A program made the translations under genes and the position numbers. The notes under the pieces were generated by a model. That model worked only from the letters and a program-made list of their open reading frames with translations, had not been told where the DNA came from and ran no database searches. This document shows positions 7,541 through 45,657 of a DNA stretch of 64,000 nt, piece by piece. The stretch lies in assembly GCA_951812925.1 (NCBI GenBank), contig OX638370.1, positions 62,001-126,000 on the forward strand. The letters are read 5' to 3'. The number at the start of each line of letters is the position of its first letter. Position 1 is the first letter of the stretch. The stretch is from Calliopum simillimum. Its lineage: Eukaryota > Arthropoda > Insecta > Diptera > Lauxaniidae.

Positions 7541-9399
7541 TTTCAGTTACAAATGGTGTACTCAGGTTTATATTAGAGCGTTTGTACTTTTAATCAATTT
7601 ACAGCTACATAAAAACAACTTTATGGTGGACCTTATGTTGTAGCATACAATTTGAATGATTTTATTTACTTTCGACGAATAAATATTTTCGTAGTTTATT
7701 GCCACATAAGGACTCCCAATTCACGTCTTTCGATGTAATTACCACAAAAACGTTTTAATACAAACCTTAACACAACATTTAATTGAGGAAGTTTTTTGTT
7801 TCAAACATCCAGTCCCATATATATTTAAATCTCTGAACGTGCACAAATAATTTGTGTACTTTTTAATTTGATAAGATTTTATTCATAAAATTAGTGGTCG
7901 AAGCATTTTTTTTTTTTTTGTATATAAACAAGTAACAATCTCTTTAAAAATAATAATAAATCGTTTGTTATTCACAAATTAAATTTTCTTGGTGTACAAA
8001 AATATAAATAAAATATGTAAGTAAAATGTATGTTAAAAAAATGTATAAAATTTACAAATATATATATAGATAATTGTTAGAAATTCAAGACTTAATTGCT
8101 TTAAATGTTAGAATAAACACTTTACACATAATTTGTTAAATTTAATATATAATTAATATTTGTTTTATGATAATCAAATTAAGTTTGTATTTAAAAATTA
8201 ATTCATTTTAGATTTACATGCGACTACCCAGCTTAGATGATATACCATTTTATTAAATCTAATTATTTTGCAACTTTTATTGTTGAAAAATTCGTTTGTA
8301 AGTTTCCATATAAAATTAAATAAATGCATTTTTCATTTGTGTTTGTTAAATATCTAACTATTAGGTTTTCTTTTTGTCGTTTTTCGATTTATTTTTATTT
8401 TTGGTCTCTTAATTTAATATAGTAACAAAATAGTGAATTGGTAATTTTTTTCCATTATTGTTTTCTTTAATATTTGTGTCGATTTACCAATAAGAAAATT
8501 AACATTATTGCATTCGATGCGGAACACCTTTCCATTTTAGGCTTACGAGTATATTTAAATTAAAATGTCTCTTTTGCTAATCTGTCGACAGTTAGATAAT
8601 CTTGAACTACGATCATTATTCGAGCAAGGCGAGTGTTAGTTACAGTCGTTAAAATTCGATCAATCGAAGTGGCAAGAAAATTGACGATGTACAGCACTCG
8701 TGAAAGTTATACAGGCAAGATCATATGTCGAATTTTATGAAATTAACTACTTCAATACTAATACTTACATTATAAGCGGACTTCATACAGTTTTAAATAT
8801 TCCGTTTGGATTTATCATTCAATGTAATTTTTGCAAACAAAAAGTATGCTTTAGAAATTTACATTGAAAGAGCCCATCTTAGCACGAATAACTTTATTTT
8901 TTGAAAATAAACAAATCATATAAATGAAATGAATTAAAAACCCAAATTTTTCAATGCAGATATAAATCGAAATCGCTTTAATTTAATATTTTTCACTTTT
9001 TATATAACTTCTTTACTTGCAATTTGAACTGCATACAACTGCATTCGTATGTATGTATATAACTCAAATAGCAGTTATGAGCGCTTTTAAATAAGCAGTA
9101 ATTTCATAAAAATTTACACAATGCATACACTATATATATATAAAAAAAATAGATAAGGAAACCAACAGGATAAAAGAATAATTTTTTTTTTCCAATAGAT
9201 GCTAAAGAATAAATAAAATGCGAATTGACAATTTATTCTGTACCAAAATCCAAAGATAAGAATTGGACTTGATGCATTCGTCATTTTGGCGGATTTGCGC
9301 CTTGCGCTCACGCCTTAAATGTTCTGGGTAGCTTGCAGTTGCAGTAAAAAGATTAAGGTTAGGAGGCTAATGAACTGATCTTCGCTTCATTGACTTGAT
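7541..9399. other. AT-rich non-coding segment, probable slit 3' UTR/downstream
   Basis: No coding sequence or long inverted repeat is visible, in contrast to the repeat-dense DNA on its left. The relative freedom from insertions fits selected 3' UTR sequence, but this is inference. Only AT-rich microsatellite stretches stand out. Confidence 0.4.
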
Positions 9400-9405
9400 T
9401 TTATT
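9400..9405 (-). terminator. Candidate polyadenylation signal AATAAA
   Basis: AATAAA on the minus strand about 245 bp beyond the UAG of the extension; another lies at 9232-9237. The surrounding 7.5-9.6 kb is AT-rich and contains many such hexamers, so the true slit 3' end cannot be chosen from sequence. Confidence 0.25.
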
Positions 9406-9647
9406 TCGCTATGTGACTCCTTAGAAAATAGTTTAGTATATATGAATAGTAGCGTTTAGTATGTAGTGATTATATCATTAAAGTAGGGAATATAATACCA
9501 TAGTAGTACGTTAATGTTAGCGTTTTGTTTGGGGGATTTAAATATTTTTAGTTTGTTAACTTTTCTGCTATAATAAACGAATTGAGATAACCTGGGGTAT
9601 TCAATTGCGATGAGAGTTTCGATCTACAATCAAATACCCGTGTTGTA

Positions 9648-11729
9648 CTACCAGTGCATCAAGCGAATTTGATCTAGAATACGCTGCTTAAAGAACGTGC
9701 TCAACATTCCAAAAACTGTTGATATGGCCATCAACATCATCATGATCTGCATGATGCAATGTATACCCGACAAGTCTTCCTCATTTTGTTTGTGCCGATG
9801 ACGCTGGCGATGATGACGACGATTCTCATGATCACGTAATCGTTGTAAACGTTCAAACTCCTCATCGAAGTGGGGAATAATTGCCAAATTCACTACCTCG
9901 GTCTTGGAAAGGACCTCCTCATTTGCAATAGTGTTTGTGTTACTTGTGGCATCAACTTCATTAGTTCCTTCAGTCTCTTGATGAATTTCTTTATGGCGTG
10001 AACGTTCATCTAACATTGTATTGTCTCGACTAAAATCAAAGTCGAAATTCCGACCTCGAGTAGAAGTTGGATAATCGGCTAGATTTACTTTTGTTAGAAA
10101 GTGTAGTGTCGAGTCAGAATTATCGTTGCTACTAATCAGTTGGCGTGGTGTGAACTCAGTTGTCGTGGTCGACATGTCCTTAACACGAAATTGCTTAAAT
10201 TGATTCTTCTTAATACCCAGTACCTCAGATAGTGGCCGATTGATCATGGGCAGTATGGAGTCTGGCGTCCTCAATAAAAACGAACTAGTTGTGTGCGGTT
10301 GGGGTGTGACATTTGGGGTATCGCTTCGTTGTTCGTCGATGACTTGCTTATTGTCTGAATTGTTTTCTTCTTTGTTTATTTTCATTTCGTTATTTTCTGA
10401 CCCTTCTTCACTATCCGCCGCTTCGCTATCGTAATTTTCACGTGATTCATTGTCCTCATATTTGTTTGAGTTACCTATGTTATGCGCGCCTGTTAAAAGG
10501 TTCGTTGAACTATTGTTGCTTTTGAAATTGTGTGTCAGATTGCGTATTGGTTCATATTTTGTATTCTCGGAGTCCCCGCGATAAAGCAGTGCAACCTTGC
10601 CATCAGGTGTTAAAACGGGTGTTATTTTAGGATGAGAAGACGCTAAACGACGACTGCTTTCTGGATCTGGAGAGAGAGCATCAAAATCAGTGAATCCAGT
10701 CGATTTTTTTTCAGTTTCCGGTTTGTTTTTACTATCGTTTTCGGTTGGATTTTGTTGATAAACAATACCTACTTTACCCAAAGGAGTTGATATTATTTTG
10801 ATTGCATCGTTATTGTTCTTTCGGAAATAACGGCTGCCAGACTTACTACGTTTCGAGTTAAAGAAATCATCCTTGATCCTTCCATTTTCATCTCTCGCAT
10901 CTTCTTCAGCGTCGTCGTCATCATCTTCATCATCATTAGCAAAGTTGCCGCTGCCTTCTCGCAAGTCAACTTCGTGACCCTTACCGCTTTCTGGCCACAA
11001 GTTCTCCTCGTTGTTTTGATACAGTTTATGGTTATCAATGAAAAATTTGTTTGGATTTTCATCAAAATGATTTCTAGACTCTAAGAAACTACGACGTTCT
11101 GATTTGGTAACACTACTTTCCTGCTCCCTAGGATATTTCTGTACAGTTGACATTTCTTTTGGTCGTTCTACAGTGATTGCAATTCGTTCATCGTCCTCAT
11201 CATAGCCCATATCTTCCTCTTCCTCATCACCAATAGATTTTTTAACTGTAATGTCTGGTTCGGAGGCTTTGTCCTCTTCGCTACTAGGGTATGAGCTATC
11301 CATATGTTCGTCGTCCTCATAGTCATCATAAAAATCGGTACTTGGATTCAATAGCATACGCTCCTCATTTTCCCCATAGCCATCTGTAGCATACTCATCA
11401 TCATATGCACCATCACCATGAAGAGGGCTTGGGTGAGTTTGATTCTGTTGGTCATTGTCATTGTCTTCATTTCTACCTCGCTGTGTTCTGCTTTTAGCGC
11501 TTGTATCACTATTTTCGTTTTCGTTAAAACTTTTCTTCCCATCTTCTATATTGGAGGTTGACTTAAAGCTAAGGCTTACATTTAAATTGTTACTTGTTAA
11601 ACTAATGTTACTGCTATTTACTTCATAATTATTCGTATAATTACTTTTTAATAATTGTGTATTATTACTATTTTGTTCTAAGGTTATATCTAAGCTGCTA
11701 TTAAGCAATTGGGTAGTCGCATCTTTCAG
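9648..11729 (-). CDS. In-frame 693-codon extension of slit (probable readthrough region)
   Basis: Directly after the slit UGA the same frame runs open for 693 codons to UAG at 9648. The first in-frame ATG is at 11357-11355, about 125 codons in, so the ORF lacks a start of its own. Seen in order: a Ser/Asn/Thr-rich stretch with six N-glycosylation sequons in its first ~50 residues; Asp/Glu-rich low-complexity sequence; two diverged motifs TPLGKVGIVYQ and TPDGKVALLYR 59 residues apart; a conserved-looking block PLSEVLGIKKNQFKQF; a His/Arg-rich stretch; a hydrophobic segment IMQIMMMLMAISTVFGML (about 9690-9764); and a 13-residue tail. I do not recognise a domain family. Inference: readthrough would add a stalk and membrane anchor to Slit. 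Alternatives are splicing round the UGA or a separate mRNA using the internal ATG. That it codes is near certain from length; how it is reached is less certain. Confidence 0.82.
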   Translation of the reverse strand: MKDATTQLLNSSLDITLEQNSNNTQLLKSNYTNNYEVNSSNISLTSNNLNVSLSFKSTSNIEDGKKSFNENENSDTSAKSRTQRGRNEDNDNDQQNQTHPSPLHGDGAYDDEYATDGYGENEERMLLNPSTDFYDDYEDDEHMDSSYPSSEEDKASEPDITVKKSIGDEEEEDMGYDEDDERIAITVERPKEMSTVQKYPREQESSVTKSERRSFLESRNHFDENPNKFFIDNHKLYQNNEENLWPESGKGHEVDLREGSGNFANDDEDDDDDAEEDARDENGRIKDDFFNSKRSKSGSRYFRKNNNDAIKIISTPLGKVGIVYQQNPTENDSKNKPETEKKSTGFTDFDALSPDPESSRRLASSHPKITPVLTPDGKVALLYRGDSENTKYEPIRNLTHNFKSNNSSTNLLTGAHNIGNSNKYEDNESRENYDSEAADSEEGSENNEMKINKEENNSDNKQVIDEQRSDTPNVTPQPHTTSSFLLRTPDSILPMINRPLSEVLGIKKNQFKQFRVKDMSTTTTEFTPRQLISSNDNSDSTLHFLTKVNLADYPTSTRGRNFDFDFSRDNTMLDERSRHKEIHQETEGTNEVDATSNTNTIANEEVLSKTEVVNLAIIPHFDEEFERLQRLRDHENRRHHRQRHRHKQNEEDLSGIHCIMQIMMMLMAISTVFGMLSTFFKQRILDQIRLMHW

Positions 11730-11732
11730 TCA
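11695..11732 (-). promoter_or_regulatory. Leaky stop context UGA-CUG with small downstream hairpin
   Basis: The slit terminator is UGA followed by CUG (close to UGA-CUA, the best-known leaky context). About 20 nt downstream TTGCT, loop TAAT, AGCAG (11708-11695) can form a 5-bp hairpin with one G-U pair. UGA-C is an established readthrough-prone context; the hairpin is short and may be incidental. Confidence 0.5.
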
Positions 11733-11816
11733 GTAGCATTTTTTTGTACATCCGCATTTACGCACTATATCGAGGTTTTTAATATATTTGCGATTATTAT
11801 TGCACACCATTCGGAC
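11730..11816 (-). CDS. sli: slit exon 21: end of cystine knot and UGA stop
   Basis: Encodes [18 protein letters not shown] then [10 protein letters not shown] and UGA (11730-11732). It starts after GGAATAG. The base after the stop is C and the same frame remains open to 9650; see the extension entry. Confidence 0.96.
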
Positions 11817-14800
11817 CTATTCCAAATATAAAACATAAATAAGTGGTGAGTTTTTTACATATATTTTCCAAGCTCACCTTTCTGCGCCTCACAATTTTAG
11901 CGGCACAGCACTGACTACCACAACCACCAACGCATTTAGCATACTTTAAGGGTTGTCGAGAACGACAATCGTTTTCTGTATAGTATTCTCGGACCTGTTC
12001 TTTACGACAAGTTGAAGTGACTAAAAAAGAATAAGAATTTAGCTAAAACGGTTCTTTTCTGTGTAGAAAGGCAAGAAAAGGGATACAGTTGTTTTGAAGA
12101 AAGGAAGCCGGTTAATGATTTATATGCGGATATATCGTGCCCTAACTGCCAAAAAGACTTAGCCGATACGATTTCAGATTTGTTTTTTAATAGAAATCGA
12201 TAACTCGCGTTCATACGTATCTTCTTTTTGGCGGTTAAGGCTCGATATGTAAGTTGTAAGTATTTATGAATGAATGAAATATAAATATTAGTACCAGTGA
12301 TTGCTGGGGGCTCGGTTGTGCCCTCACCTTGATCACAGTAACGTCCCTTGTATCCATGCTTACATTTGCATTGATATCCGTCCCGAGAATTCTGATTGGG
12401 TATGCACCGACTTCCACGTCGGCATTTATTATTTTCGCATGGATCAACCTTAAAATGAATTAGTACGAATATATTAAAATTTTAATATACACAGCGACCT
12501 TTTTTAAAATACCTCTTTTATATGTGGCGTCTCGTCCATAAAGTCCTCCTCGTCATCTTCGGTATTTTCGCCTTCCAATAACGCACAACCTGGCGTTATT
12601 TTTTGTTGTCTTGCTGCATTACCGAAATCAACAAGCTTATGGTTAATCCATACTTCTTTCATGCAACCTTTGAAACTTGTTAGGTTTCGTATTTGCCAGT
12701 TTTTATAAGCTTGATGGCCTGGCTCTGATGGCAGTCCTCCCAAAAACATTGGTGTGGTAAGCTTTAAATAGTCATTCGACCCGTCATTAATTATTGATCT
12801 TGCAAGGCCACGATCAACACGTAATGTAAAATTTTTCTTAATCGCAAGCAGCTCTACACAATGGTACTTCCCATCTGCTACCATTTCAAAGCTGTACATT
12901 GTCGAAACCGGATAGTTTCCAACGTCATAGCTTACGCGTATGCGACCATTAAAAAGTTCCACTGCCAAATGGGCATTTTCACCGTCATACATCAGTATAC
13001 CGTTTTGTTCAGAGCTACTAAAAACAATAGTAACATTGGCATCCGGTTTCGTACGCAGCGGTTCCATCTCTACAAATGAATTATTGTGTACGAAGCTAAT
13101 GCTTGTCAAGTACTCGCACCACTTTCCAGTGTAGCCGGGATGGCACTTGCATACATAGTCCGAACCAGAAGGATTTGGCTGAAAGCAAACGCCATGCTTG
13201 CATTCATGGTTTTGACATGGCGATGTTTGCGGATACATCATGGACACCATATTGTGTCCCTCGCAATATTTGCCAGTAAAATCATCTGGACATTTACAAA
13301 CATAATCGTTTATTCCATCTATGCAGGTTCCACCATTTTTACAAATATGATTGAGGCAGTCATCGATATTGTCTGTACAGTTAACTCCATGGAAGCCAGG
13401 AGTACACTCACATGTGTAATGGGTGAAATGGTCATGGCATTTAGCTCCATTAAAACATGGGTTAAACTCATCACTGCAAAAGTTTATTTTCATATCACAG
13501 AATTCACCTGTATATAAATAAATTAATATTAATTACTATATTTTATAAGAGTATTCAGGCCTGTTCCGTAATCCGCGTGGTTTCAATTACTTTTCAGTGA
13601 AAAGTTTTCACTTAGGAGGCTTTTTCATGAAAATGGTGAGTCTTACGATAAAAGGTATTAGAATCTTTTTTGTGGAGAGTTACAGGTTCTATAAATAATA
13701 TTCATTTGTATTAACGAAAAAGTAACTTATTCGGAAATATTTGATATGCCGTATTTTTTGACTTTTTGCGGTTTTTTAATAATATTTCCTAAACGGTTCC
13801 TTTTTCGTTAATTCCAATCGATGTTATTTGTAGAACCCGTAATTCCCAACAAAAAAGTTCCTTATACTTTTTTTTTATACTCACCATTTTCATGAAAAAG
13901 CCTTATAAATGAAAAGTAATTGAAAACACAGAGATTACGGAACAGGTCTGATTATATAAGTACTATTGACTTACCCGTAAACCCTGGCTGACATAAACAG
14001 GTATAAGTTTCTACACCGTCTATGCATGTTGCATTGTTCTGACATTTTATTTCACCCAAACAGTCATCGATGTTTGTCTCGCAGCGGGCTCCGGTGTATC
14101 CAGGAGCACACTGACAACTAAATCTCCCTTCTTCAAGTACAGTGCAGGTAGCATTGTTGCGGCATGGATTTCCATAGCATGCATCAATCATAAATTCACA
14201 ATGACGTCCATGATACCCTGGCTGACAAAGACATTGATAGTCTCGCTGAGGCAGTGGTATGCACTGTGCTTTGTTTTGGCATGGTACCGTGTAGCACACA
14301 TCACACTTGGAAAGTATAGTATTGCTTATTTTTTCTTTGCAAAGGAAGTGATGTGAAGGAGTTGATAAAATTAATTTATCTTTCATAAATTCTGGCTCAG
14401 CACAACGTGCGATTCCTGGTTCAACATAGTCGAGCTTAATCCAATCAGAAAACCATTTAAGAGAACAATCACAATAGAGAGGATTGCTACCAAGTGCACT
14501 TAGAGAATTGGAGAAAATGGTTTGACAGTTTGAAGTTTTACATATAAAATTTCATTAATAAGCTACTTACATATGCGTTATGGATTTGAGATCGTCAAAC
14601 AAACCTTCTGGAAGCATTGAAATCTGGTTTCCGTACAGTGACAAAACACGTAAGTTATGTAAGCCCGACATAGCAAACCGCTGAATGCATTGTAAATTGT
14701 TGTAAGATATTATGCTGTAATCAGAAAATAAAATATTTTCCATGTTTGTATTGGAATGTGCAATTAACCAAAAAACAAAGATTTCAGATAGAGGTGTGGA

Positions 14801-23800: not shown

Positions 23801-26800
23801 TATATAAAATAAAAATTGTAACGTTCGCAACGTAACGTGCGCAACACACAAAAGTTACATTTTTGTACGAACGAAGGACTCTTTGATTCCCTCAAAAGCA
23901 GTTTCCATAAGCTCAAACATTATTCTTTCTTTGGAGGATTTGGCTTTTTTTGTTTATACTGGAAAATTCGTTAAAAATTTTGAAAATGTACATTGATCTC
24001 CACAACGACTTCTGTTTTTTGTAACGTGCAAACAGCACTTTATGCACGATTATATTGTTACTGATAAAAGCCAGGAAATGTTTTTAAATGCCTTTTGAAA
24101 GTACTCTCAAATGGTAACATACCACTGCAGGTAAATTAAAAATTTAACATTCAGAGCGCCTTCAGGATTAAAAAATATGCGTACGAATGTAACGTTCGCA
24201 ACGCAGGATTAGCCCATATGTGACCTGGTCTATGAAAAGGGTGCTTACGTGTCAAAAAAAATGTTTTTTAATTTTTTGCCGATTTTCTAAATTAACCCTT
24301 AAAAGTTGTTTTTCAGCTATTTTCACGAAATTTTTTTTTTCGCACGTAAGCCCCTTTTCATAGACCAGGTCACATATATGATTTTGACAAAAAAAAAATG
24401 TTTTCAAATACATGAAATTTTTGCTAGTTAAATTTTATCCAGTAAAATCTTGCAACAAACTGACATTTTACTCTCACACTTTCTCTTTCGTTACTGGATT
24501 TTTAGGTTCACCAAACGCGTTTCGGTAACAATTTGTACAAATTTGTACTGTCTTATGCCATACAGACCTATCTACATTAAAACTCACTAAATAGTTTTCA
24601 TCTGACATACTTTGTACATACATGATCCTCCACAAGAAAAGGCCGATATCTTCACAAATTCAAAAACTCGGTTTTTTTGCATTTCCTATAAATAAATATT
24701 ATTTTGAATAAAATAGCACATCTGAGTTATAGACGGAGAGCTGAGCACATAAATTTGGGAAACTAAGGACTGTCCCAGAACTTTGTTTTTCATTAATTAA
24801 AAAATGTCCAATGAATTTTTTTTTTTTATTTATTTTTTACAGGGTTTGATCTGCTGACTATAAAATAGCTATAGCAACGAAAATTTGCTGAACTGTGCTG
24901 AGTCAGTTATTGCGTTTTACATTTTGGGCTTACTGCTTGCTATGCTTTTTTTCAAAAAAGTTTCTTTAGTTTTCTGATTAATCAAATGACGTGACAATGA
25001 TATTTCTATGTCTCACCATTGAGTAGAAATATTACTTTTTCCGTTGCAATCTCAACCGGTCCAAGGTACACCATGCAAGTGTACCTTAGACTGGCGTTAG
25101 GAAATAACGCCCAAGGAAATAACGCCCAAAAAAAAAAAAAGAAATAACGCCCAAATTATTTTCATATAAATTTGGGCGATAATCATTTTGGAAATAACGC
25201 CCAAAAATTTGGGCTTTATTTCGTTTTTTTTTTGGGCGTTATTTCCTTTTTTTTTAAAAAAAACGAAATAACGCCCAAAAAAAATGAAATAACGCCCAAA
25301 AAATAAAATGACGTAATAACGCCCAAAATAAAAAACGAAATAACGCCCAAAAATATGAAATAACGCCCAAAATCATAAACGAAATAACGCCCAAATTATT
25401 TTCATATAAATTTGGGCGATAATCATTTTGGAAATAACGCCCAAAATTTATTTGTATGAAAATAATTTGGGCGTTATTTCGTTTTTCGTTTTTGGGCGTT
25501 ATTTCATTTTTTAAAAATAAAACGAAATAACGCCCAAAAAAACGAAATAAAGCCCAAATTTTTGGGCGTTATTTCCAAAATGATTATCGCCCAAATTTAT
25601 ATGAAAATAATTTGGGCGTTATTTCGTTTTTGTTTTTGGGCGTTATTTCATATTTTTTGGGCGTTATTTCGTTTTTTATTTTGGGCGTTATTACGTCATT
25701 TTATTTTTGGGCGTTATTTCGTTTTTTTTTTGGGCGTTATTTCCTTGGGCGTTATTTCCTAACGCCCCTTAGACTTTTAAAAATAAAAAAGAATAAATTG
25801 TTTTTAGGTAATAAATTATGAAAGAACCATTTATTATGTAATCAAAAGTAACATTTTCTCAATAAAAAAAAAAATTAATCATATGCAAAAATTATAACAC
25901 AAAAAGTGCAGTTAGTAAAAAACAAGTTATTTTCAAAAAAGGGTTGCAAATAAATACATTAATCACGTAAATAATAATAATAATATTCGTCGAAAAAGGC
26001 TCGCTGGTCAATAAGCATAGGTCCAAGGTACACACAGACAGCATGTTTTAAAAACTGTCAACACCCATAACATACACTAATGAAAATACATCTAAAACAC
26101 ACTAAAAGCTTAAAACAATAACTAAACTTCCTTCCTGATGTTGTAAAACTGAAATATTTCAAGTAAGTTTCTCACAAAACGTTTCGTAGTTTACTCCAAA
26201 AACAAATTTTTACACACAAAAAAACACTTTTTACGTCGCTTTTTATACACGCATACAGCTTGACGGTCTGAATTCTACTAATATGAGTCACCGGTATGAG
26301 TGGAAAATTCCATAAAAGAACATTATCGTACATGTGCAACTGTTGAGTGGCGACCGACACTCGGACCGAGGTACACTCGGACCAAGGTACACACATCTCC
26401 CCTATGTATGTATGTATTCTCCTTTAACTCCTAGGAGGAGCATAGGGCCAATATGAAATCTCTCCATTTGTCACGATCCCTTGCGATGACTTTGATCTCT
26501 TGCCACGATTTTCCCGATTCTTGGATTTCCTTTTCCAACGACCTTTTCCAGTTGGTTTTGGGTCTACCACGTCCTCTACTGCCTTGTGGATTCCACTCAA
26601 GGGCCTGGCGACAAACTTCGCTGTGTGGTTTCCGGAGAGTGTGACCAATCCATCCCCATTTGCGCAGCTTGATCTCGTTTGCTATAGCCTTCTGTTTGCA
26701 TTTTTGATGTAGCTCGGCATTTGATATAGTGCGAGGCCACCAAACCTTTAATATACGCCTTAAGCATTTGTTGACGAATACTTGCAGCTTGTTTGTTAGT

Positions 26801-29800
26801 TGTTCAGTAACAAGCCATGTTTCGCACCCATATAACAAAACCGATTTCACATTCGAATCAAAAATGCGCACTCTCGTTTTGGTGGATATAACGGATGAAG
26901 ACCATATTTTGTTCAGTTGAGCAAACGCGCCTTTTGCTTTTGCTATTCTTGAGTTGATATCCTCTTTTGCTCCACCATCCATGGAGATAATGCTGCCTAG
27001 ATACGTGAAGCTATCGACGTTTCCGATGTCATCACTGCCAGCTTTAAACGTCATGTCATTGCTTGCGTTTAGCTTCATGCTTTTAGTCTTGGATACGTTG
27101 ATTTTTAGGCCGGCCTTTTGTGATTCCAAGACAAGGTCTTCAATTTTGCTTTGCATATCTGAATGTTTGGACGATAAGAGGCAGATGTCGTCAGCGTAGT
27201 CGAGATCTTCCAGATGTTCGGTAAAGTTCCATTGAATACCCCTTTTGGCCTTATTAAGAGCTTTATCTAGGATATCATCAAGAACGATAAGGAAGAGTGA
27301 TGGTGATAGTAAACACCCCTGCCGTACGCCTGAATTAGTGGTGAATGTCGGTGACAACAACCCGTTGTGTAACACACTGCATTTAAAGCCTTCATATTGT
27401 GCACGTACTAAGTTTATGGCCTTTGCGGCAATACCTCTTCGTTGCAGTGACGCCCAGATGTTTTCTCGGGAGACACTGTCAAAGGCAGTGCTATAGTCAA
27501 CGAAGACAAGTTGAAGTGCAGCACGCCACTCGCATGATTGTTCGACAATTATTCTGAGCGTGTTGATTTGATCCACGCATGATCTGTTTCGCCGGAATCC
27601 TGCTTGCTGCTTTCGAATGGCTGAATCAAGTTTTTCGCTTACCCTGCTCAGAAGCACTTTCGTCAGTACTTTTGATGGAACTGAGAGCAAGGTGATGCCT
27701 CTATAGTTTCGGCACTCGCTTAGGTCACCTTTTTTCGGTAATTTGACTAACATGCCATGTAGCCAATCTTCTGGCAAACGCTCTTCACTCCAGATTTTGT
27801 TGAGCAGAGGATGGAGAATTTTAGCTGATGTTACGGGGCATGCCTTTAGCAGTTCAGCTGTTATTTGATCTATACCGGCGGCCTTGTTGTTTTTCATGCT
27901 TTGGATAGCTTTCACAATTTCATCAATTGTAGGCGGCGGTGTTTGTATTCCCCTATGGTTTATGCTAATTTTACAAAATAAAACCAGGTGGCAACCTGAA
28001 TGTTTTTGTTTCCTTTTGCTATTGCTTCGTTCTCTTTCGAAAAGCATAGCGGCAGCGAAGCAAACATTTTGAAATTATCGACTTCAACTGTAGCAGCAAG
28101 CGATCGGATTTCGTAAAAGAGCTTCGGCTCTGCTACTGCTTATGAATTGAAAAAACAGCACAGCACAGCAGACAGTTCAATTTTAAATTTGTGCTTCGAC
28201 TGTAGAGCTGTGCTGTGTAATTTTTCTATAGTCGCAGCACAGCAAATCAATAGGCTAAAAAATAGCTCAGCAAAATCAAACCCTGATTTTTTAGTTTTTT
28301 ATTTGTATAAATTTTGTATTGTAAAGAATAGAAATAACCCTAAAACTATAAACAAATATTTATTTTCTGTAAAATATTTCACTTTTTTCCTTAGGCCTTT
28401 TGTTAAGACTTCGTCGACAGTACCGTACGCCCTTCTCCACTTAGTTATTTTTATAATCTTGTAATTTTTTTGCAATAGGTGTTTTTACTCTTTCGAATAA
28501 AAAAAATTTCAGAAGAGCCCAATATCTCTCAAAAAGTCGAAGCTCTGAGCAGTTAAGTAAATTCGCCCGTTTTTAACAAAGTGTTCATTTTTGCTCTTGT
28601 ACTACTTTACCGCGGCTTTAGAGTGATGAGAACTGGCTATATTGGCTCAGAACATGACAGTATCTACCTTCGTGTCCACGAATGAATGGCATTTTATGGC
28701 ATTCATTCGTTAAAACAATTTCGAATTTATTGTGCCATGTGTTGCAAAAACTGCTTCGCAGACCGCACGTGCATATCGGCTTTCAAACCATAAACTGCTT
28801 GGGAATTTTTGTGATTTTCTTTTCTCTAATTTTGCACCTGTAGCTGTTTGAAATCTGCCTGAACGTGTGCTTCATTGTCTATTATGTAACAGTCAAATTT
28901 AGTCAGGAAGCCTTCATATAACTTTCGATCTCGCTTTGAAGCCAAATACAGTTTTTCATCGTAACTTTTTGAACTTTGTAGGTCTTCAGCTTACTTTTCT
29001 TCTTTACTTTTTGTATAGAAGATTCCGAGGTACCTGCTCTTACAGCAGTATCTCGTATTGAAGTGTCGGAATTCCACTTAAAGAGTTAAATTGTTTTTTT
29101 TTTAACTCCTTTACAAAATTAATCCTAAATTACATATAACAAGCCATACACTAAGTAAGACCGTTATAACTTAAAAATTCAGCATGCAGTTAAAGTAAAC
29201 AAGTTAATATGTTCTGTGATTAATTCCTACAATACATACACTTAAACACATACATAGACGTATTCATTTATTGCTACAACAAAGCTTTCAAAGAAATAAT
29301 CTTGTTGCAGAAACCACTAAAAGCAAATTAAATATAATTCTTGTACATTACTACTTACAATCGCAAAAGACTAGCTGAACTTGTCACAAAGTTTTCAGGG
29401 ATTGCCTTAAGTCGATTGTTGTTAAGACGTCTTTGGAGCAGCAATTGTAAAAACGTGCAAATTTTCCAAAATTAAAAATAAAATTAAAGAAAAGAATGTT
29501 TAAAAAAATGTATTAAAATAGGTCTACACAAAATTATTATTTTAAATTCGACCGGGAGCTGGAGGTACTGAGGGGTGTAAAATTTGAGTGGATAACTTCC
29601 TCACGATGCTACGGAATGAAATGAAATACATTTTGAATTCAAATAAATTATTTTTCAGAATTTGTTTCCATACTATTTTAGGATAATATATCTATTGAAC
29701 AGTTCTGGATTTTGTCTTCCGACCTTCAACCATTTTTCGACCTCATTTCAAAAAGATTGAAGATCAAATTCAAATTTGAAAAAATTTTTTCTTAATCAGC

Positions 29801-38800: not shown

Positions 38801-39302
38801 TTTATTCAAGCAAAAATCAATAGAAATATCCTTGTATAACCTATTGAGCAATAAAAGAGTTCTATTAATGGGCTCATTAATGGCATAGTTCGACCTGTGA
38901 CACTTGATATAAAAATAATCCGAGGATCGTAAACTCCTTGAAGGAATATTAAAGCCAATCAGCTGAAGGATCTCTGAACAATCAATAAAACCATTGATTA
39001 CATCATAAATAAACATGATACTATGGACAAGACGCCGATTTTCAAGACTCTCAAGATGTATAAGCATACAACGAGCATTGTATGACGGTAAAGGCTCATT
39101 AAAATCCAGTGAATGTAGTGCGAACTTAACAAATTTTCGTTGAACACGCTCAAGGCGAGTAATATGTACCCCATAGTAAGGATTCCAAATAAAAGAACCA
39201 TATTCTAAATTGGATCTTACAAATGAGGTATAAAGAAGTTTTCTTGTATAGGGATCAACAAAAGCAGCGCTGTTCCGTTTAATAAAAGCTAAAAGACTCA
39301 AA

Positions 39303-39337
<35 letters not shown>

Positions 39338-45300: not shown

Positions 45301-45657
45301 AATAAACTAACATTTTGAAAATAAAACAAGTGTCATTTAAGAATATTTTACTTACAGTCTTTCAACATCCGCAGATATTTTTCTGGGAACTTGTGTCAAT
45401 CCACGATGCGAACAATCGACTGTTAATCCATTACATGTGCAAACACGCGGGCAACGCGATTCACTGATCACGCCCACACTACCACCAGGAATGTGAATGC
45501 CAACCGAACCACCGCCATAAGGCTCAGCCTCGACATTAAAAAACAATACAGAGTTCAAAAAGAACCATAAGCAAAGGAGACGCGATTTGGGAGGAACAGC
45601 ATTCGCAATCCACCCTATACCCCTCTTACACCGCGTTAGGGTCTTGAACTGTATCAT
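11730..45657 (-). CDS. sli: slit: secreted Robo ligand (21 coding exons, complete)
   Basis: Slit is a secreted repellent that binds Robo receptors through its second LRR domain and steers axons, muscle and tracheal cells. Spliced exons (minus strand, in order): 45356-45657, 32095-32166, 30923-30994, 29359-29430, 22929-23072, 22501-22736, 19295-19436, 19085-19228, 18428-18643, 17042-17199, 16827-16980, 16548-16766, 16187-16258, 15508-15876, 15377-15448, 14571-14714, 13975-14498, 12513-13507, 12295-12448, 11878-12020, 11730-11816. They sum to 4491 nt, 1496 residues plus UGA, close to the Drosophila length. All introns are GT-AG and all phases agree. Domains: signal peptide about 1-44; LRR domains D1-D4 about 69-920; EGF1-6 to about 1170; laminin G about 1175-1345; EGF7 about 1370-1408; cystine knot about 1421-1496. 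The start ATG has an in-frame TAA four codons upstream. Exon assignment was by hand without transcript data. Confidence 0.97.
11878..12020 (-). CDS. sli: slit exon 20: first part of C-terminal cystine knot
   Basis: Encodes [18 protein letters not shown], then a basic stretch, [19 protein letters not shown]. This is the core of the CTCK dimer module. Acceptor TTTTTTAG, donor GTGAGC, phase 0 exit. Confidence 0.96.
12295..12448 (-). CDS. sli: slit exon 19: EGF7
   Basis: Encodes [15 protein letters not shown] to [19 protein letters not shown], the single EGF between laminin G and the knot. The donor GTACTA is non-consensus after +2 but needed for phase with exon 20. The exon had no usable single-frame ATG ORF and was found by homology and phase. 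Confidence 0.92.
12513..13507 (-). CDS. sli: slit exon 18: EGF4-6 and laminin-G domain
   Basis: The largest coding exon of the canonical protein. It encodes EGF4 ([15 protein letters not shown]), EGF5 ([16 protein letters not shown]) and a linker [15 protein letters not shown] in the region where Slit proteins are cleaved. EGF6 and a laminin-G module follow, running from [13 protein letters not shown] to [18 protein letters not shown], and an acidic tail [16 protein letters not shown] closes the exon. The donor GTATTT is weak; intron retention would add VF and a stop. Confidence 0.96.
13557..13950. mobile_element. Foldback MITE occupying slit intron 17
   Basis: Ends AGGCCTGTTCCGTAATC and GATTACGGAACAGGTCT are complementary, and GGCTTTTTCATGAAAATGGTGA recurs inverted. 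It fills most of the 467-bp intron (13508-13974) and shares its terminus with the elements at 2242 and 40463. Confidence 0.8.
13975..14498 (-). CDS. sli: slit exon 17: D4 LRRCT and EGF1-3
   Basis: Encodes the D4 cap ([20 protein letters not shown] to FLCKE), then three EGF modules. EGF1 starts [18 protein letters not shown]2 [15 protein letters not shown] and EGF3 [16 protein letters not shown]. The donor GGTAAGT splits the Gly codon ending EGF3. Confidence 0.96.
14571..14714 (-). CDS. sli: slit exon 16: two LRRs of D4
   Basis: A 144-nt exon encoding [14 protein letters not shown] and [14 protein letters not shown] repeats. The acceptor is TTACAG; it exits after AT of an Ile codon at GTAAGT. 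Confidence 0.94.
15377..15448 (-). CDS. sli: slit exon 15: one LRR of D4
   Basis: A 72-nt exon encoding [19 protein letters not shown] and the end of the repeat; NYT is a potential N-glycosylation site. Acceptor TTTTTTGCAG, donor GTAAGT. The upstream intron is 59 bp. Confidence 0.94.
15508..15876 (-). CDS. sli: slit exon 14: D3 LRRCT, D4 LRRNT and first D4 LRR
   Basis: Encodes the D3 cap ([20 protein letters not shown] ... NEFKC), then the D4 cap [14 protein letters not shown] and repeat [16 protein letters not shown]. The only donor that keeps frame with exon 15 is GTTCGT, which is weak at +3 and +4. A nearby GTATGA donor four bases later would break the frame. Confidence 0.93.
16187..16258 (-). 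CDS. sli: slit exon 13: one LRR of D3
   Basis: A 72-nt exon encoding [18 protein letters not shown] and the rest of one repeat. Acceptor TTTTTACAG, donor GTAAGT, Leu phase at both ends. Confidence 0.94.
16548..16766 (-). CDS. sli: slit exon 12: three LRRs of D3
   Basis: A 219-nt exon, one codon more than three 72-nt units, encoding [32 protein letters not shown] and [16 protein letters not shown]. Acceptor TTCTTAG, donor GTGAGT. Confidence 0.95.
16827..16980 (-). CDS. sli: slit exon 11: LRRNT of D3
   Basis: Encodes [20 protein letters not shown] followed by [16 protein letters not shown] and [12 protein letters not shown]. The intron upstream is only 61 bp (16981-17041). Acceptor TTAATTAAG, donor GTAAGT. 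Confidence 0.94.
17042..17199 (-). CDS. sli: slit exon 10: LRRCT cap of D2
   Basis: Encodes [20 protein letters not shown] through [17 protein letters not shown], the C-terminal cap of D2 with its very basic stretch. Acceptor TTTCTAG, donor GTAAGT inside the last Cys codon. Confidence 0.95.
17630..17855. mobile_element. TIR MITE with TA duplication in slit intron 9
   Basis: TIRs CTATGAGCGCCATAAGTGAG and the near-complement at the right end (CTCACTTATGACGCCCATAG), flanked by TA, give a 226-bp Tc1/mariner-type MITE. An ORF crossing it is a by-product. Confidence 0.8.
18428..18643 (-). CDS. sli: slit exon 9: three LRRs of D2
   Basis: A 216-nt exon (three 72-nt units) encoding [28 protein letters not shown] and [14 protein letters not shown] repeats. 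Acceptor TTCATTGCAG, donor GTGAGT. Confidence 0.95.
19085..19228 (-). CDS. sli: slit exon 8: two LRRs of D2
   Basis: A 144-nt exon with repeats [14 protein letters not shown] and [17 protein letters not shown]2 is the domain whose concave face contacts Robo Ig1. Acceptor TTTCTACAG, donor GTAAGT; both junctions have the Leu codon phase. Confidence 0.95.
19295..19436 (-). CDS. sli: slit exon 7: LRRNT of D2
   Basis: Encodes [16 protein letters not shown], the cysteine cap [14 protein letters not shown] and the lead-in SLPDDTTEL of domain D2, the Robo-binding domain in the Slit family. Acceptor TTTTTCACAG, donor GTAAGT. Confidence 0.95.
19437..22500. other. slit intron 6 (3.1 kb), repeat-filled
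   Basis: Contains a dispersed repeat (about 19790-20830) related to 44030-44940 and 42387-42500, a TTCTTAGGTGGCTCACTT block (about 21408) shared with 43311, and a short piece of the GGTGCCACGCC family at about 22160-22285. No coding sequence is supported. Confidence 0.6.
19790..20830. repeat. Dispersed repeat related to 44030-44940
   Basis: Shares blocks such as CTTCTCTTCTTATACGAGCT, ATATAATACGCTATAAAAAG and GGCGTGGCACCGC with the 44-kb copy. There are two internal near-repeats (about 20040-20230 and 20470-20650). Non-coding. Confidence 0.6.
22501..22736 (-). CDS. sli: slit exon 6: last LRR and LRRCT cap of D1
   Basis: Encodes the last D1 repeat ([16 protein letters not shown]) and the cysteine cap beginning [16 protein letters not shown] and ending DQEFKC. 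The exit phase changes to 1, marking the D1/D2 boundary. Donor GTAAGA. Confidence 0.95.
22929..23072 (-). CDS. sli: slit exon 5: two LRRs of D1
   Basis: A 144-nt exon, twice the 72-nt unit, encoding [16 protein letters not shown] and [16 protein letters not shown] repeats. Acceptor TTCTCCAG, donor GTAAGT. It follows a 6.3-kb intron (23073-29358) that carries the hAT/FB/RTE nest. Confidence 0.95.
24215..24380. mobile_element. Short foldback MITE
   Basis: The first ~37 bp, beginning CATATGTGACCTGGTC and ending GTGCTTACGTG, recur as reverse complement at the right end. Length is 166 bp, in slit intron 4. Confidence 0.75.
25093..25766. mobile_element. FB-like foldback with 9-bp target duplication
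   Basis: A palindromic 674-bp element built from repeated GGGCGTTATTTCG modules. Ends are GGCGTTAGG and CCTAACGCC. It is flanked by the 9-bp direct repeat CCTTAGACT (25084-25092 and 25767-25775). Long inverted arms of short tandem modules plus 9-bp duplications recall Drosophila FB elements. It lies inside the hAT ends. Confidence 0.85.
26403..27955 (-). mobile_element. RTE-clade-like non-LTR retrotransposon, 5'-truncated
   Basis: The coding strand ends ...AGGAGTTAAAGGAGAATACATACATACAT, so the 3' end is a short (ACAT)n tail at 26403-26417, typical of RTE-like elements. The 5' break is near 27955. The part corresponding to endonuclease is absent. Related 3' ends occur at 30143-30510, 40054-40174 and 60411-60479. 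Confidence 0.85.
26431..27955 (-). pseudogene. Reverse transcriptase, 5'-truncated but otherwise open
   Basis: The open frame (to 28047 including non-element sequence) encodes an RT domain beginning at [20 protein letters not shown]. It carries [18 protein letters not shown], the A-box [25 protein letters not shown], catalytic [10 protein letters not shown] and the thumb-type [10 protein letters not shown]-terminal region ([25 protein letters not shown]) ends LALCSS. Both YADD aspartates are present and no stop interrupts the frame, indicating a fairly recent insertion. Without the AP endonuclease it cannot be autonomous. Its role is target-primed copying of its own RNA. Confidence 0.9.
28294..29358. 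other. Rest of slit intron 4, no features
   Basis: AT-rich intronic DNA between the hAT right duplication and exon 4. No coding sequence or clear repeat was recognised. Confidence 0.5.
29359..29430 (-). CDS. sli: slit exon 4: one LRR of D1
   Basis: A 72-nt exon encoding [15 protein letters not shown] and the rest of one repeat. The donor is GTAAGT; the acceptor CCAAAG has a poor pyrimidine tract. The phase matches exons 3 and 5. Confidence 0.92.
30143..30510 (+). mobile_element. RTE 3'-end fragment
   Basis: Matches the last ~115 codons and 3' UTR of the 26-kb RTE in opposite orientation ([16 protein letters not shown] recognisable), with frame disruptions upstream and a (ACAT)n tail. Lies in slit intron 3. 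Confidence 0.85.
30923..30994 (-). CDS. sli: slit exon 3: one LRR of D1
   Basis: A 72-nt single-LRR exon ([16 protein letters not shown]...) with acceptor TTTACAG and donor GTGAGT. Both junctions interrupt a Leu codon after base 2, as in exons 2 and 4, so it can be joined or skipped without a frame change. Confidence 0.93.
31016..31930. repeat. Nested inverted repeats in slit intron 2
   Basis: Outer arms about 31016-31130 and 31815-31930 share the TTAGACTGCTTCAT and TTTGCTTTCAAACAGGTTTA blocks inverted. Inside, 31470-31580 and 31690-31806 form a second inverted pair (TTTCTATTTCGTTTCTGAGG against its near-complement). Confidence 0.7.
32095..32166 (-). CDS. sli: slit exon 2: one LRR of D1
   Basis: This 72-nt exon encodes exactly one leucine-rich repeat ([16 protein letters not shown]...). 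It begins after TTTTTCAG with the third base of a Leu codon and ends after the second base of another, before GTAAGT. It is separated from exon 1 by a 13.2-kb intron filled with mobile elements. Confidence 0.93.
32371..33078. repeat. Inverted repeat ~708 bp at start of slit intron 1
   Basis: Left sequence beginning GAGAAAATCC and containing GATCCTTACATCTGAGGTGT recurs inverted at the right, ending GGATTTTCTCATGAG. A related fragment lies at 57660-57740. Confidence 0.75.
33549..33654. mobile_element. 106-bp MITE with GGGGGTTATCGTGAATCA ends
   Basis: Perfect terminal inverted repeats starting GGGGGTTATCGTGAATCATG. The same family occurs at 60087-60499, where it is split by an RTE derivative, and its terminus matches sequence at 48694-48711. 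Confidence 0.9.
34081..35090 (-). pseudogene. Tc1/mariner transposase, DD37E type, broken
   Basis: A DDE transposase in slit intron 1. Seen from the N-terminus: a helix-turn-helix ([20 protein letters not shown]), GSGRKQG linker, second HTH ([17 protein letters not shown]), first catalytic Asp in [10 protein letters not shown], second in [16 protein letters not shown] (codon 34369-34371), and acidic third residue in [11 protein letters not shown]. Counting gives 37 residues between the second Asp and the Glu of VER, the spacing of ITmD37E elements described from mosquitoes. The frame is broken by an indel in a poly-A run near 34425 and by two TGA codons between it and the second Asp, one where a Trp is expected. 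Start and TIRs were not located. Confidence 0.85.
36200..37569. mobile_element. TIR element with repeated ATGTATCCGGGTATGAGAC module
   Basis: ATGTATCCGGGTATGAGAC occurs at the left end and, as variants, near 36397 and 36573. Its complement occurs near 37160 and 37185 and at the right end. The arrangement is palindromic overall. Another MITE is nested inside. No transposase ORF. Confidence 0.75.
36672..37113. mobile_element. Nested TIR MITE
   Basis: Ends GGCTGACTTCCTAAACTAA and TTAGTTTAGGAAGTCAACC are near-perfect complements, and homology continues into TTGCAATGCAAC. Inserted in the 36200-37569 element. Confidence 0.8.
37737..38150. repeat. Inverted repeat
   Basis: The CCATTATATCCTG and CATTAGGGGTCACCAAAG blocks of the left arm recur inverted as CTTTGGTGACCCCTAATG and CAGGATATAATGG on the right. 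Confidence 0.75.
38259..39715 (+). mobile_element. GGTGCCACGCC-family dispersed element, interrupted
   Basis: Begins ACTAGTAAGGGTGT, followed by TTGGCCTGGCCAAACATTAA. It has tandem ~150-bp modules containing GGGAGGTGCCACGCC, then a CAGCCAGCCAGACAGACGG block and AGGAGGTGACGCTGATCAAG, and ends CCTGGGTGTAGGGTATAAAA. A non-LTR fragment (38717-39340) splits it. Other copies: 42687-43301, 53779-54656, 55793-56160, 56369-57145, 58744-59185. Confidence 0.8.
38717..39340 (-). pseudogene. Non-LTR retrotransposon RT C-terminal fragment, 5'-truncated
   Basis: A 179-residue open frame (38762-39301) carries [20 protein letters not shown] and [14 protein letters not shown]. This region follows the RT domain in jockey/CR1-like elements. 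The catalytic motif is absent. An (AAAT)n tract sits at its 5' side (39301-39338). Insertion into the dispersed element is shown by host sequence resuming at about 39341. Confidence 0.8.
40054..40174 (-). mobile_element. 121-bp RTE 3'-end insertion with 12-bp TSD
   Basis: The RTE 3' terminus with (ATAC)n tail, flanked by ACGACTGCTTAT on both sides (40042-40053 and 40175-40186). A severely 5'-truncated retrotransposition event. Confidence 0.9.
40463..40957. mobile_element. CCGGCCTGTTCC-family TIR element, complete-looking
   Basis: Starts CCGGCCTGTTCC and ends GGAACAGGGCGG (imperfect TIRs). Contains a perfect 22-bp palindrome centred at 40930/40931 (core CCACTTTCACGTGAAAGTGG). The partial copy at 2242-2528 matches its left part. 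Confidence 0.7.
42247..42306. repeat. Tandem duplication, ~31-bp unit x2
   Basis: TGTTGTACAGAAATATTGAT followed by GTTGTTGGG is repeated twice almost exactly. Confidence 0.85.
42687..43301 (-). mobile_element. GGTGCCACGCC-family dispersed element
   Basis: Minus-strand copy from the TAGGGTATA end to the GGCCAGGCCAAATGTTACAC end, with two internal modules. No protein coding. Confidence 0.8.
44030..44940. repeat. Dispersed repeat related to 19790-20830
   Basis: Shares CTTCTCTTCTTATATGAGCT, ATAATACGCTATAAAAAG and GGTGCCACGCCCTTT blocks, partly inverted about 44600. Lies in slit intron 1. Confidence 0.6.
45172..45287. mobile_element. 116-bp MITE next to slit exon 1 donor
   Basis: Ends AGTGTTCGTTCACTAGTCCAG and CTGGACTAGTAAACGAACACT are complementary with one mismatch. 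It sits 68 bp from the exon 1 splice donor. Confidence 0.85.
45356..45657 (-). CDS. sli: slit coding exon 1: signal peptide and first LRRNT
   Basis: Starts at the first ATG after an in-frame TAA (45667-45669). It carries a basic N-terminus, a hydrophobic core ([14 protein letters not shown], residues 27-40), an AEPYGGG junction and the four-cysteine LRRNT of domain D1 ([14 protein letters not shown]). It ends after the second base of a Leu codon at a consensus donor GTAAGT. The N-terminal extension before the hydrophobic core is long for a signal peptide, so an internal start is conceivable, but no better ATG is present. Confidence 0.95.

What the first reader, a model, noticed from the sequence alone, without database searches (positions are those of the whole stretch)
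9648..11732. Slit has a 693-codon in-frame ORF after its UGA: candidate readthrough to a membrane-anchored Slit
Seen: the stop frame (11730-11732) and the long ORF are in the same phase. The ORF begins at the very next codon, has no ATG for about 125 codons, and runs to UAG at 9648. None of the AG sites just after the UGA gives the phase needed to splice directly from exon 20 or exon 18 and skip the stop. The ORF starts with six N-glycosylation sequons and ends in a hydrophobic segment plus short tail, as expected of an extracellular stalk and anchor. Established: UGA-C readthrough with conserved C-terminal extensions is common in Drosophila. Inference: a few percent of Slit would be tethered, changing the range of a diffusible repellent. 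The extension is nearly half the length of Slit itself, exceptional for readthrough. Whether it is already annotated in Drosophila was not checked.
Basis: partly seen in the sequence, partly recalled or inferred. Interest (0 to 1): 0.93.

Follow-up and report, generated by a model that had tools for sequence, protein, structure and literature searches.

The report
Slit readthrough adds a membrane anchor
In flies the gene for the secreted axon-guidance protein Slit carries, straight after its stop codon, a long conserved coding stretch ending in a likely membrane-spanning segment, so leaky termination probably makes a membrane-anchored Slit; its production has not been measured here.

Summary
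Slit's UGA (11732-11730, minus strand, next base C) is followed in frame by 693 open codons ending in UAG. Relatives occur in Drosophila, tephritids, Glossina, Sarcophaga, Megaselia, sandflies, mosquitoes and Chironomus. Nine database proteins run from the Slit C-terminus through W at the stop position into the extension. With the window and one partial mosquito model, 11 of 11 read L-x-D-A-[TA]-T right after the stop. In one relative no methionine precedes the membrane segment, so an internal AUG cannot make the protein there. Seven public gene models bypass the UGA, no two by the same join. The extension is mostly disordered, with a confident C-terminal helix holding a hydrophobic stretch.

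Best explanation: UGA readthrough yields a long Slit anchored by its C-terminus. Readthrough is likely; relatives' DNA was not seen, and topology, amount and function are untested. Splicing round the stop is the main rival. Whether FlyBase already annotates it could not be checked. The kind is known in flies; a natural membrane-tethered Slit was not found in the papers searched.

The parts
45325..45636 (-). Slit first coding exon (approximate ends), signal-peptide-like start
   Evidence: tblastn with D. busckii Sli P0101
12513..13514 (-). Slit EGF/laminin-G exon (approximate ends)
   Evidence: 88% identity to P0101 residues 1054-1390
11878..12020 (-). Slit penultimate coding exon, start of the C-terminal cystine-knot region; donor AAG|GTGAGC, phase 0
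11733..11816 (-). Slit last exon, coding part (VRMVCNNN...CGCTKKCY)
11730..11732 (-). Slit UGA stop codon, next base C (UGA-CUG)
9651..11729 (-). 693-codon in-frame extension
11712..11729 (-). LKDATT, the six codons after the UGA; L-x-D-A-[TA]-T in 11 of 11 sequences that reach it
10758..10811 (-). conserved core 1 NDAIKIISTPLGKVGIVY (residues 307-324); strands 310-314 and 320-324 predicted with low confidence (block pLDDT 47)
10575..10628 (-). conserved core 2 KITPVLTPDGKVALLYRG (residues 368-385); predicted beta-hairpin 369-383 (block pLDDT 79)
10533..10541 (-). N-glycosylation sequon NLT at residue 397; sequon in 23 of 29 aligned proteins at this column
10212..10238 (-). conserved motif RPLSEVLGI (residues 498-506)
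9789..9821 (-). Arg/His-rich stretch before the membrane segment, RRHHRQRHRHK (residues 637-647)
9690..9761 (-). hydrophobic segment HCIMQIMMMLMAISTVFGMLSTFF (residues 657-680), likely transmembrane helix; holds the only Cys of the extension
   Evidence: KD19 = 2.02; helix 653-692, block pLDDT 83-87 over residues 661-693
9651..9689 (-). 13-residue C-terminal tail KQRILDQIRLMHW
9648..9650 (-). UAG stop of the extension
9400..9405 (-). AATAAA, possible poly(A) signal after the extension

Best explanation
The UGA of slit is a leaky, conserved readthrough stop. Most ribosomes stop there and make secreted Slit. A fraction decodes UGA (context UGA-CUG) and adds 693 residues: a long, mostly disordered acidic stalk with two small conserved cores, a recurring glycosylation sequon, an Arg/His-rich stretch and a C-terminal hydrophobic helix with a 13-residue tail. 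Because Slit enters the ER by its own signal peptide, this helix would halt transfer and leave Slit displayed on the surface as a type I membrane protein. Proteolytic cleavage of Slit would still free Slit-N and leave Slit-C in the membrane. Shown: the frame, the conservation, that conservation starts directly after the stop, and that no AUG start is available in one relative. Inferred: decoding of the UGA, membrane insertion, topology, and any effect on signalling range.
For: In-frame 693-codon ORF with negligible chance probability. Homologues across Diptera: 99 proteins and 122 with a profile. Nine database proteins continue from the Slit C-terminus with W at the stop position into the extension; with the window and P0074, L, D, A and T at positions 1, 3, 4 and 6 after the stop are 11 of 11, and similarity between lineages fades from position 8. 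W is best read as TGA translated with code 4 (inference). Eight of the nine begin at the Met just behind the intron, so they probably come from unspliced, genomic DNA. In a close relative of P0007 (79% identity, P0012 of Sarcophaga bullata) the gene model jumps over this same spot. Seven gene models skip the stop and no two share a join (P0012, P0101-P0106). P0048 has no Met before residue 408 of 441, at the start of the hydrophobic segment, and P0046 none before 241 of 444. Hydrophobic maximum near the C-terminus in 124 of 125 proteins examined, each with KD19 >= 1.65. Confident helix 653-692. Sequon at residue 397 in 23 of 29 aligned proteins while the middle residue varies.
Against: No ribosome profiling, peptide or cDNA was seen. 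The DNA of the relatives was not available, so TGA at their stop position is inferred and synonymous-substitution tests could not be run. A cryptic donor and in-frame acceptors exist in the window, and the skipping gene models share their upstream side in pairs (after ..VR in P0012 and P0105, after ..VRK in P0101 and P0103, after RRRK, the natural donor, in P0102 and P0106). A start at a non-AUG codon is not excluded. No RNA stem-loop follows the UGA (z -0.54 and +1.09). The flank before the helix carries +4 over 30 residues against +2 for the tail, so the positive-inside rule does not clearly favour a cytosolic tail. The N-terminal sequons are no more than composition predicts, and 24 of 111 relatives lack the sequon near 397. 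Dunn et al. list eight readthrough extensions with predicted transmembrane domains, and slit is not among them (PMC3840789, passages seen). ATTAAA at 11652 and AATAAA at 10380 could end the mRNA before the whole ORF.
Confidence: 0.76

Rival explanations
1. Alternative splicing removes the UGA: a donor in or before the last exon joins to an acceptor inside the extension, so the long protein is a splice isoform lacking the end of Slit's cystine knot.
For: In the window a cryptic donor at 11761 (GTAAAT, phase 1) fits acceptors at 11689 and 11677, and the natural donor fits 11561. Seven public gene models use introns here, and some share their upstream side.
Against: No two of the seven models share the whole join; the three within one genus (Anopheles, P0104-P0106) all differ. 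The most conserved part of the first 60 residues is the six codons touching the stop (11 of 11); introns like these would remove most or all of it.
Confidence: 0.14
2. The extension is a separate protein (own transcript or internal initiation on the slit mRNA), a cytosolic tail-anchored protein.
For: C-terminal membrane segment with a short tail; basic stretch before it; a Met-containing acidic motif recurs in many relatives (MQLNP, MQAD, MMQND, MMMGDD). Databases list it as a separate gene in several species (P0010, P0015, P0020, P0021).
Against: P0048 has no Met before the membrane segment and P0046 none before residue 241 of 444. Conserved coding sequence lies between the stop and the first Met: LxDA[TA]T in 11 of 11, and SSLD-like residues in several higher flies. 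The sequon at 397 recurs in 23 of 29, as expected for a lumenal protein.
Confidence: 0.05
3. The UGA is changed or specially decoded rather than merely leaky: A-to-I editing to UGG, or selenocysteine insertion.
For: W at this position in nine database proteins would also fit UGG.
Against: Eight of the nine look like unspliced genomic sequence (they begin just behind the intron), where editing would not show. W also stands at the second stop in eight relatives, pointing to TGA read by code 4. None of the four sub-threshold Rfam matches at 8000-12100 is a SECIS family.
Confidence: 0.03
4. A variant of the best explanation, whose odds overlap with it: readthrough occurs but the hydrophobic helix does not anchor Slit at the surface; it is a targeting, retention or degradation signal for readthrough products.
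For: Hydrophobic C-terminal tails can destabilise readthrough products (recalled, not from a call). Topology signals are ambiguous.
Against: H657, C658, M660, Q661, F673 and G674 are invariant over 29 aligned relatives. A degradation signal needs hydrophobicity, not invariant residues behind an extension of about 440 to 720 residues (lengths) with conserved cores.
Confidence: 0.12

Closest known systems
Conserved stop-codon readthrough in Drosophila (328 genes annotated in FlyBase as of 2015; PMC4528330, section 23 read)
   Same: UGA, in-frame ORF conserved as protein, long extension mostly disordered with islands of conservation, no SECIS match
   Different: The extension is long (693 aa; most are 8-300), adds a likely membrane anchor to a secreted cue, and its first residues are conserved across several dipteran lineages
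caps 240-aa readthrough extension (PMC4528330)
   Same: Leucine-rich protein with a long readthrough extension of patchy conservation
   Different: Caps is already a transmembrane protein; here the likely anchor itself lies in the extension
Readthrough extensions with predicted transmembrane domains (eight genes, Table 2 of PMC3840789, passages seen)
   Same: Readthrough adds a predicted transmembrane segment
   Different: Slit is not in that list
Engineered membrane-tethered slit alleles slit-CD8 and slit-GPI (PMC7648596, passages seen)
   Same: Slit held at the membrane by a C-terminal anchor, with Slit-N released by cleavage
   Different: Those anchors are artificial; the one here would be natural and made from the same mRNA

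Membership tests
Conserved stop-codon readthrough gene | In-frame ORF directly after the annotated stop, far longer than chance | tested here: met
   693 codons, chance 5e-22 to 7e-24
Conserved stop-codon readthrough gene | Leaky context: UGA followed by C | tested here: met
   TGA CTG at 11732-11727
Conserved stop-codon readthrough gene | Extension conserved as protein, starting at the stop | tested here: met
   11 of 11 sequences L-x-D-A-[TA]-T; 99 and 122 relatives
Conserved stop-codon readthrough gene | Stop codon itself conserved | tested here: inconclusive
   W in nine proteins and skipped in seven gene models; relatives' DNA not available
Conserved stop-codon readthrough gene | No splice route round the stop | tested here: inconclusive
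   Cryptic donor and acceptors in phase exist; no cDNA
Conserved stop-codon readthrough gene | No independent AUG start for the extension | tested here: met
   First Met at residue 408 of 441 in P0048 and 241 of 444 in P0046; in the window at codon 125, so there a start would lose the first 124 residues. Non-AUG starts not tested
Conserved stop-codon readthrough gene | Translation past the stop observed | not testable with these tools
   Needs ribosome profiling or peptides
Type I membrane protein | Hydrophobic helix long enough to span the membrane | tested here: met
   KD19 2.02; helix 653-692; no dedicated transmembrane predictor was run
Type I membrane protein | Upstream signal peptide in the same polypeptide | tested here: inconclusive
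   Signal-like start in the first coding exon by tblastn and reading; no signal-peptide predictor was run
Type I membrane protein | Lumenal N-side, cytosolic C-side | tested here: inconclusive
   Recurring sequon at 397 for; flank charges +4/30 aa before, +2 after neutral to against
Selenoprotein | SECIS element downstream | tested here: not met
   No SECIS family in the Rfam scan of 8000-12100; that Rfam holds SECIS models is recalled
Any named Pfam domain family | Match to a curated model | tested here: not met
   0 Pfam families for the window protein; four families matched by one member each, best E 0.0069, among 23 proteins

The most novel reading that the evidence does not exclude
Diptera in general carry two Slits from one mRNA: the secreted cue and a membrane-anchored one made by UGA readthrough. 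The ratio is set by tissue-dependent termination, giving a built-in short-range or cleavage-reservoir form of Slit. The conserved six-codon LxDA[TA]T element at the stop would serve both as peptide and as readthrough signal, and some lineages would use a second readthrough to swap the tail.
Probability: 0.45. Interest if true: 0.87.

Novelty: new member of a known kind. Interest (0 to 1): 0.72.

Why it matters
How Slit acts over distance, and whether full-length or cleaved Slit signals, has been probed with artificial CD8 and GPI tethers (PMC7648596, passages). If flies make a tethered Slit themselves, the short-range function can be tested by changing one codon. C-terminal tags and anchors placed at the slit locus may have removed this isoform unnoticed (inference; PMC7648596 reports that a C-terminal Myc tag may disrupt Slit-FL function). 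It would also be a case of readthrough switching a secreted signal to a membrane protein, with a conserved extension family for which Pfam gave no entry.

Tried and rejected
Bacterial and viral contig collections were scanned with the family profile for stray fly DNA: 45 and 41 pattern matches, none a relative. So no nucleotide sequence of a relative could be had, and codon-substitution tests were dropped. An RNA stem-loop after the UGA was sought and not found. A solved structure was sought by sequence (0 hits) and by profile (2 hits at E 0.14 and 0.71, both in the first 115 of 549 profile positions). Selenocysteine: no SECIS.

Literature: whole-word search for stop codon readthrough with sli (1 irrelevant paper); readthrough with C-terminal extension in Drosophila (37 papers, 30 listed); slit with readthrough (21 listed, none on Slit readthrough judging by titles and abstract starts); gene identifiers (1 paper, an RNAi screen, not opened); membrane-tethered Slit; further sets. 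In the main texts of PMC3840789, PMC13170385, PMC4528330, PMC4999894, PMC8417969 and PMC5100048 the word 'slit' occurs 0 times. Word-start 'sli' occurs 1, 2, 2, 3, 4 and 1 times; the matches displayed were words such as slight, slippage, slicing; of the three in PMC4999894 only one was displayed. FlyBase's own list of readthrough genes (File S5 of PMC4528330) and Jungreis et al. 2011 (not held) could not be read; from memory only, slit may already be annotated there. In one search no D. melanogaster long-form record appeared among 6 hits; such records carry X at the stop (PMC4528330) and may be absent from, or clustered away in, that database.

A fold search of the model was not run: only 51 of 693 residues reached pLDDT 70.

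Rows dropped before counts: one search left out 7 of 132 proteins from the hydrophobicity count (P0100, P0012, P0030, P0053, P0099, P0103, P0132). Of the 125 left, 110 have the maximum starting 30-39 residues from the C-terminus, 4 at 40-49, 10 at 50-59, and one (P0101) has it at its N-terminus. The 87 of 111 sequon count covers the 111 of 131 proteins that hold the KYEP-like motif, with a sequon starting within four residues after it. The counts are of related species and are not independent.

Full report
WHAT IS THERE. The minus strand of the window carries the slit gene. tblastn with the Drosophila busckii Sli protein finds its exons from about 45636 down to 11733. The last exon runs 11816-11733 for Slit itself and ends [11 protein letters not shown]; the base after TGA is C. 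The frame then stays open for 693 codons, 11729-9651, to TAG at 9650-9648. Under the base composition of the stretch, 693 open codons have a chance of about 5e-22, and 500 mononucleotide shuffles never exceeded 143. One match at E <= 0.001 lies in the 690-Mb genome of the window.

IT IS CODING AND CONSERVED. A search with the 693 residues gave 99 proteins. A profile of 23 members gave 122, of which 120 were listed. Both searches scored only the candidates sharing most words, so these are lower bounds. Each hit shown with a species name is dipteran: Glossina, Sarcophaga, Anastrepha, Rhagoletis, Bactrocera, several Drosophila, Megaselia, Sergentomyia, Phlebotomus, Anopheles, Wyeomyia, Chironomus. 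Most hits are unnamed, so absence outside Diptera is not shown. In 29 aligned members the invariant columns cluster in two similar cores (...IKIISTPLGKVGIVY and ITPVLTPDGKVALLYRG), KYEP, PLSEVLG, and the C-terminal segment with invariant H657, C658, M660, Q661, F673 and G674. No Pfam family fits the window's protein; among 23 relatives four families match one member each, best E 0.0069.

CONSERVATION STARTS AT THE STOP. Nine database proteins (P0001, P0004, P0007, P0045, P0046, P0048, P0110, P0113, P0130) run from the Slit C-terminus through W at the stop position into the extension; P0130 has two extra residues before the final Y. A tenth, an NCBI partial model of Anopheles funestus (P0074), begins LQDATTH. 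With the window these are 11 sequences. Position 1 is L in 11 of 11, position 3 D in 11, position 4 A in 11, position 5 T or A, position 6 T in 11; from position 8 on, lineages differ. The window and P0074 match at 5 of the first 10 residues. For Drosophila melanogaster-Anopheles gambiae readthrough pairs the published mean is 3.9 of 10, against 5.4 for control C-termini (PMC5100048, passage seen); the species compared here are not the same.

WHY W MEANS TGA. Eight of the nine proteins begin at the methionine just behind the position of the last intron, as if that intron had not been removed: they are most likely genomic DNA. The same database reads W at the second stop in eight relatives (P0040, P0042, P0043, P0049, P0056, P0107, P0110, P0113; the last two are also among the nine), as a code-4 translation would. 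Sarcophaga bullata's gene model (P0012), 79% identical to P0007, jumps over this spot. This is inference; the DNA was not seen.

RIVALS TESTED. (1) Own AUG: in the window the first in-frame ATG is codon 125, but in P0048 no Met precedes residue 408 of 441, at the start of the hydrophobic segment, and in P0046 none precedes 241 of 444. Internal AUG initiation cannot make the conserved cores of P0048; a non-AUG start is not excluded. (2) Splicing: the natural donor (phase 0) meets its first phase-0 AG at 11561, codon 57. A cryptic donor at 11761 could join to 11689 or 11677, so phase alone does not exclude splicing. Public gene models of seven species skip the UGA (P0012, P0101-P0106). Their upstream sides coincide in pairs (..VR in P0012 and P0105..VRK in P0101 and P0103, RRRK in P0102 and P0106), but no two share the whole join, and three Anopheles differ from each other, which looks like gene-finders inventing introns. 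Introns of this kind remove most or all of the hexapeptide touching the stop. (3) Selenocysteine: no SECIS. (4) Editing: would not show in genomic contigs, and was not otherwise tested. No stem-loop follows the stop; by the passages seen, only a minority of the 113 ancient readthrough pairs of PMC5100048 has a predicted structure.

WHAT THE EXTENSION LOOKS LIKE. AlphaFold2 on the 29-row alignment gives mean pLDDT 43. The confident elements are a helix 653-692 (block pLDDT 83-87 over 661-693) and a beta-hairpin 369-383 (block 79). A similar hairpin at 310-324 is predicted with low confidence (block 47), as are two short helices; the rest has no predicted secondary structure. The helix holds a stretch with mean hydropathy 2.02 over 19 residues; the next best place in the extension reaches 0.72. 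Of 125 relatives examined, 124 have their maximum within 60 residues of the C-terminus, each at least 1.65; the exception, P0101, has its maximum at its N-terminus. The only Cys of the window's extension is C658 at the start of this segment. A sequon stands at residue 397 in 23 of 29 aligned members, with a varying middle residue, and within four residues of KYEPx in 87 of 111 relatives. That speaks for passage through the ER lumen, but it was not tested against a null model, and 24 of 111 lack it, among them named mosquito proteins (P0063, P0074, P0078, P0089). The charge pattern round the helix is ambiguous.

HOW IT PROBABLY WORKS. Slit enters the ER by its own signal peptide. When a ribosome reads the UGA, the stalk follows and the C-terminal helix stops transfer, giving a surface-bound Slit with a 13-residue tail inside. 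In Drosophila, Slit is cleaved, and full-length and N-terminal forms differ in action (PMC7648596, start of abstract and passages; PMC5087687, introduction read). Engineered tethered alleles change axon guidance (PMC7648596). A natural tether would set a pool of Slit that acts on contact or is released as Slit-N. The readthrough step is likely, the membrane step plausible, the signalling role a guess.

KNOWN OR NEW. Readthrough with conserved extensions is a known fly mechanism: FlyBase listed 328 genes in 2015, extensions from 4 to more than 1000 aa, 22 double cases (PMC4528330). Ribosome profiling listed eight extensions with transmembrane segments, slit not among them (PMC3840789, Table 2 passage). 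I found no paper on Slit readthrough in the searches named in Tried and rejected. The full gene lists were not readable, and from memory slit may already be in FlyBase's list. Databases already hold the stretch as fused 'Protein slit' or 'sli' models and as unnamed genes, and Megaselia's as 'SLIT2.2 family protein', but without a readthrough interpretation in what I saw. I therefore rate it a new member of a known kind, with an unusual consequence.

Noticed in passing
P0040, P0042, P0043, P0049, P0056, P0107, P0110, P0113 (C-termini): In these relatives the extension's own stop position is also read as W and followed by a short tail; six share EMVGVRYWVG[FL]SRRGGV[IV]L, two share LVVPF. P0044 has Q at that spot with a similar tail, and P0076 and P0081 carry a similar tail without it: possible second readthrough. 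The window shows nothing like it in frame after its UAG.
   Followed up: partly
window residues 307-324 and 368-385 of the extension (10811-10758, 10628-10575): The two conserved cores look like copies of each other (TP-x-GKV then a hydrophobic run ending in Y), both drawn as beta-hairpins, the first with low confidence; no Pfam family matches.
   Followed up: partly
alignment A1, around window residue 125: A Met-containing acidic motif (MQLNP, MQAD, MMQND, MMMGDD) recurs in many members of the extension family but P0046 and P0048 have no Met there; a meaning other than initiation is open.
   Followed up: partly
window 11652 (ATTAAA) and 10380 (AATAAA), minus strand: Poly(A)-like signals inside the extension could shorten the slit mRNA and so control how much long Slit can be made.
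   Followed up: no
window 26431-28074, 34319-35368, 38762-39412, 46985-47737: Long ORFs in or near slit introns that look, from recalled motifs, like a LINE reverse transcriptase, a mariner-like transposase, a fragment of another element and a retroelement integrase.
   Followed up: no
PMC7648596 (passage): The authors found that a C-terminal Myc tag may disrupt full-length Slit function without blocking secretion or cleavage; loss of a readthrough form in such alleles would be one possible reason.
   Followed up: no
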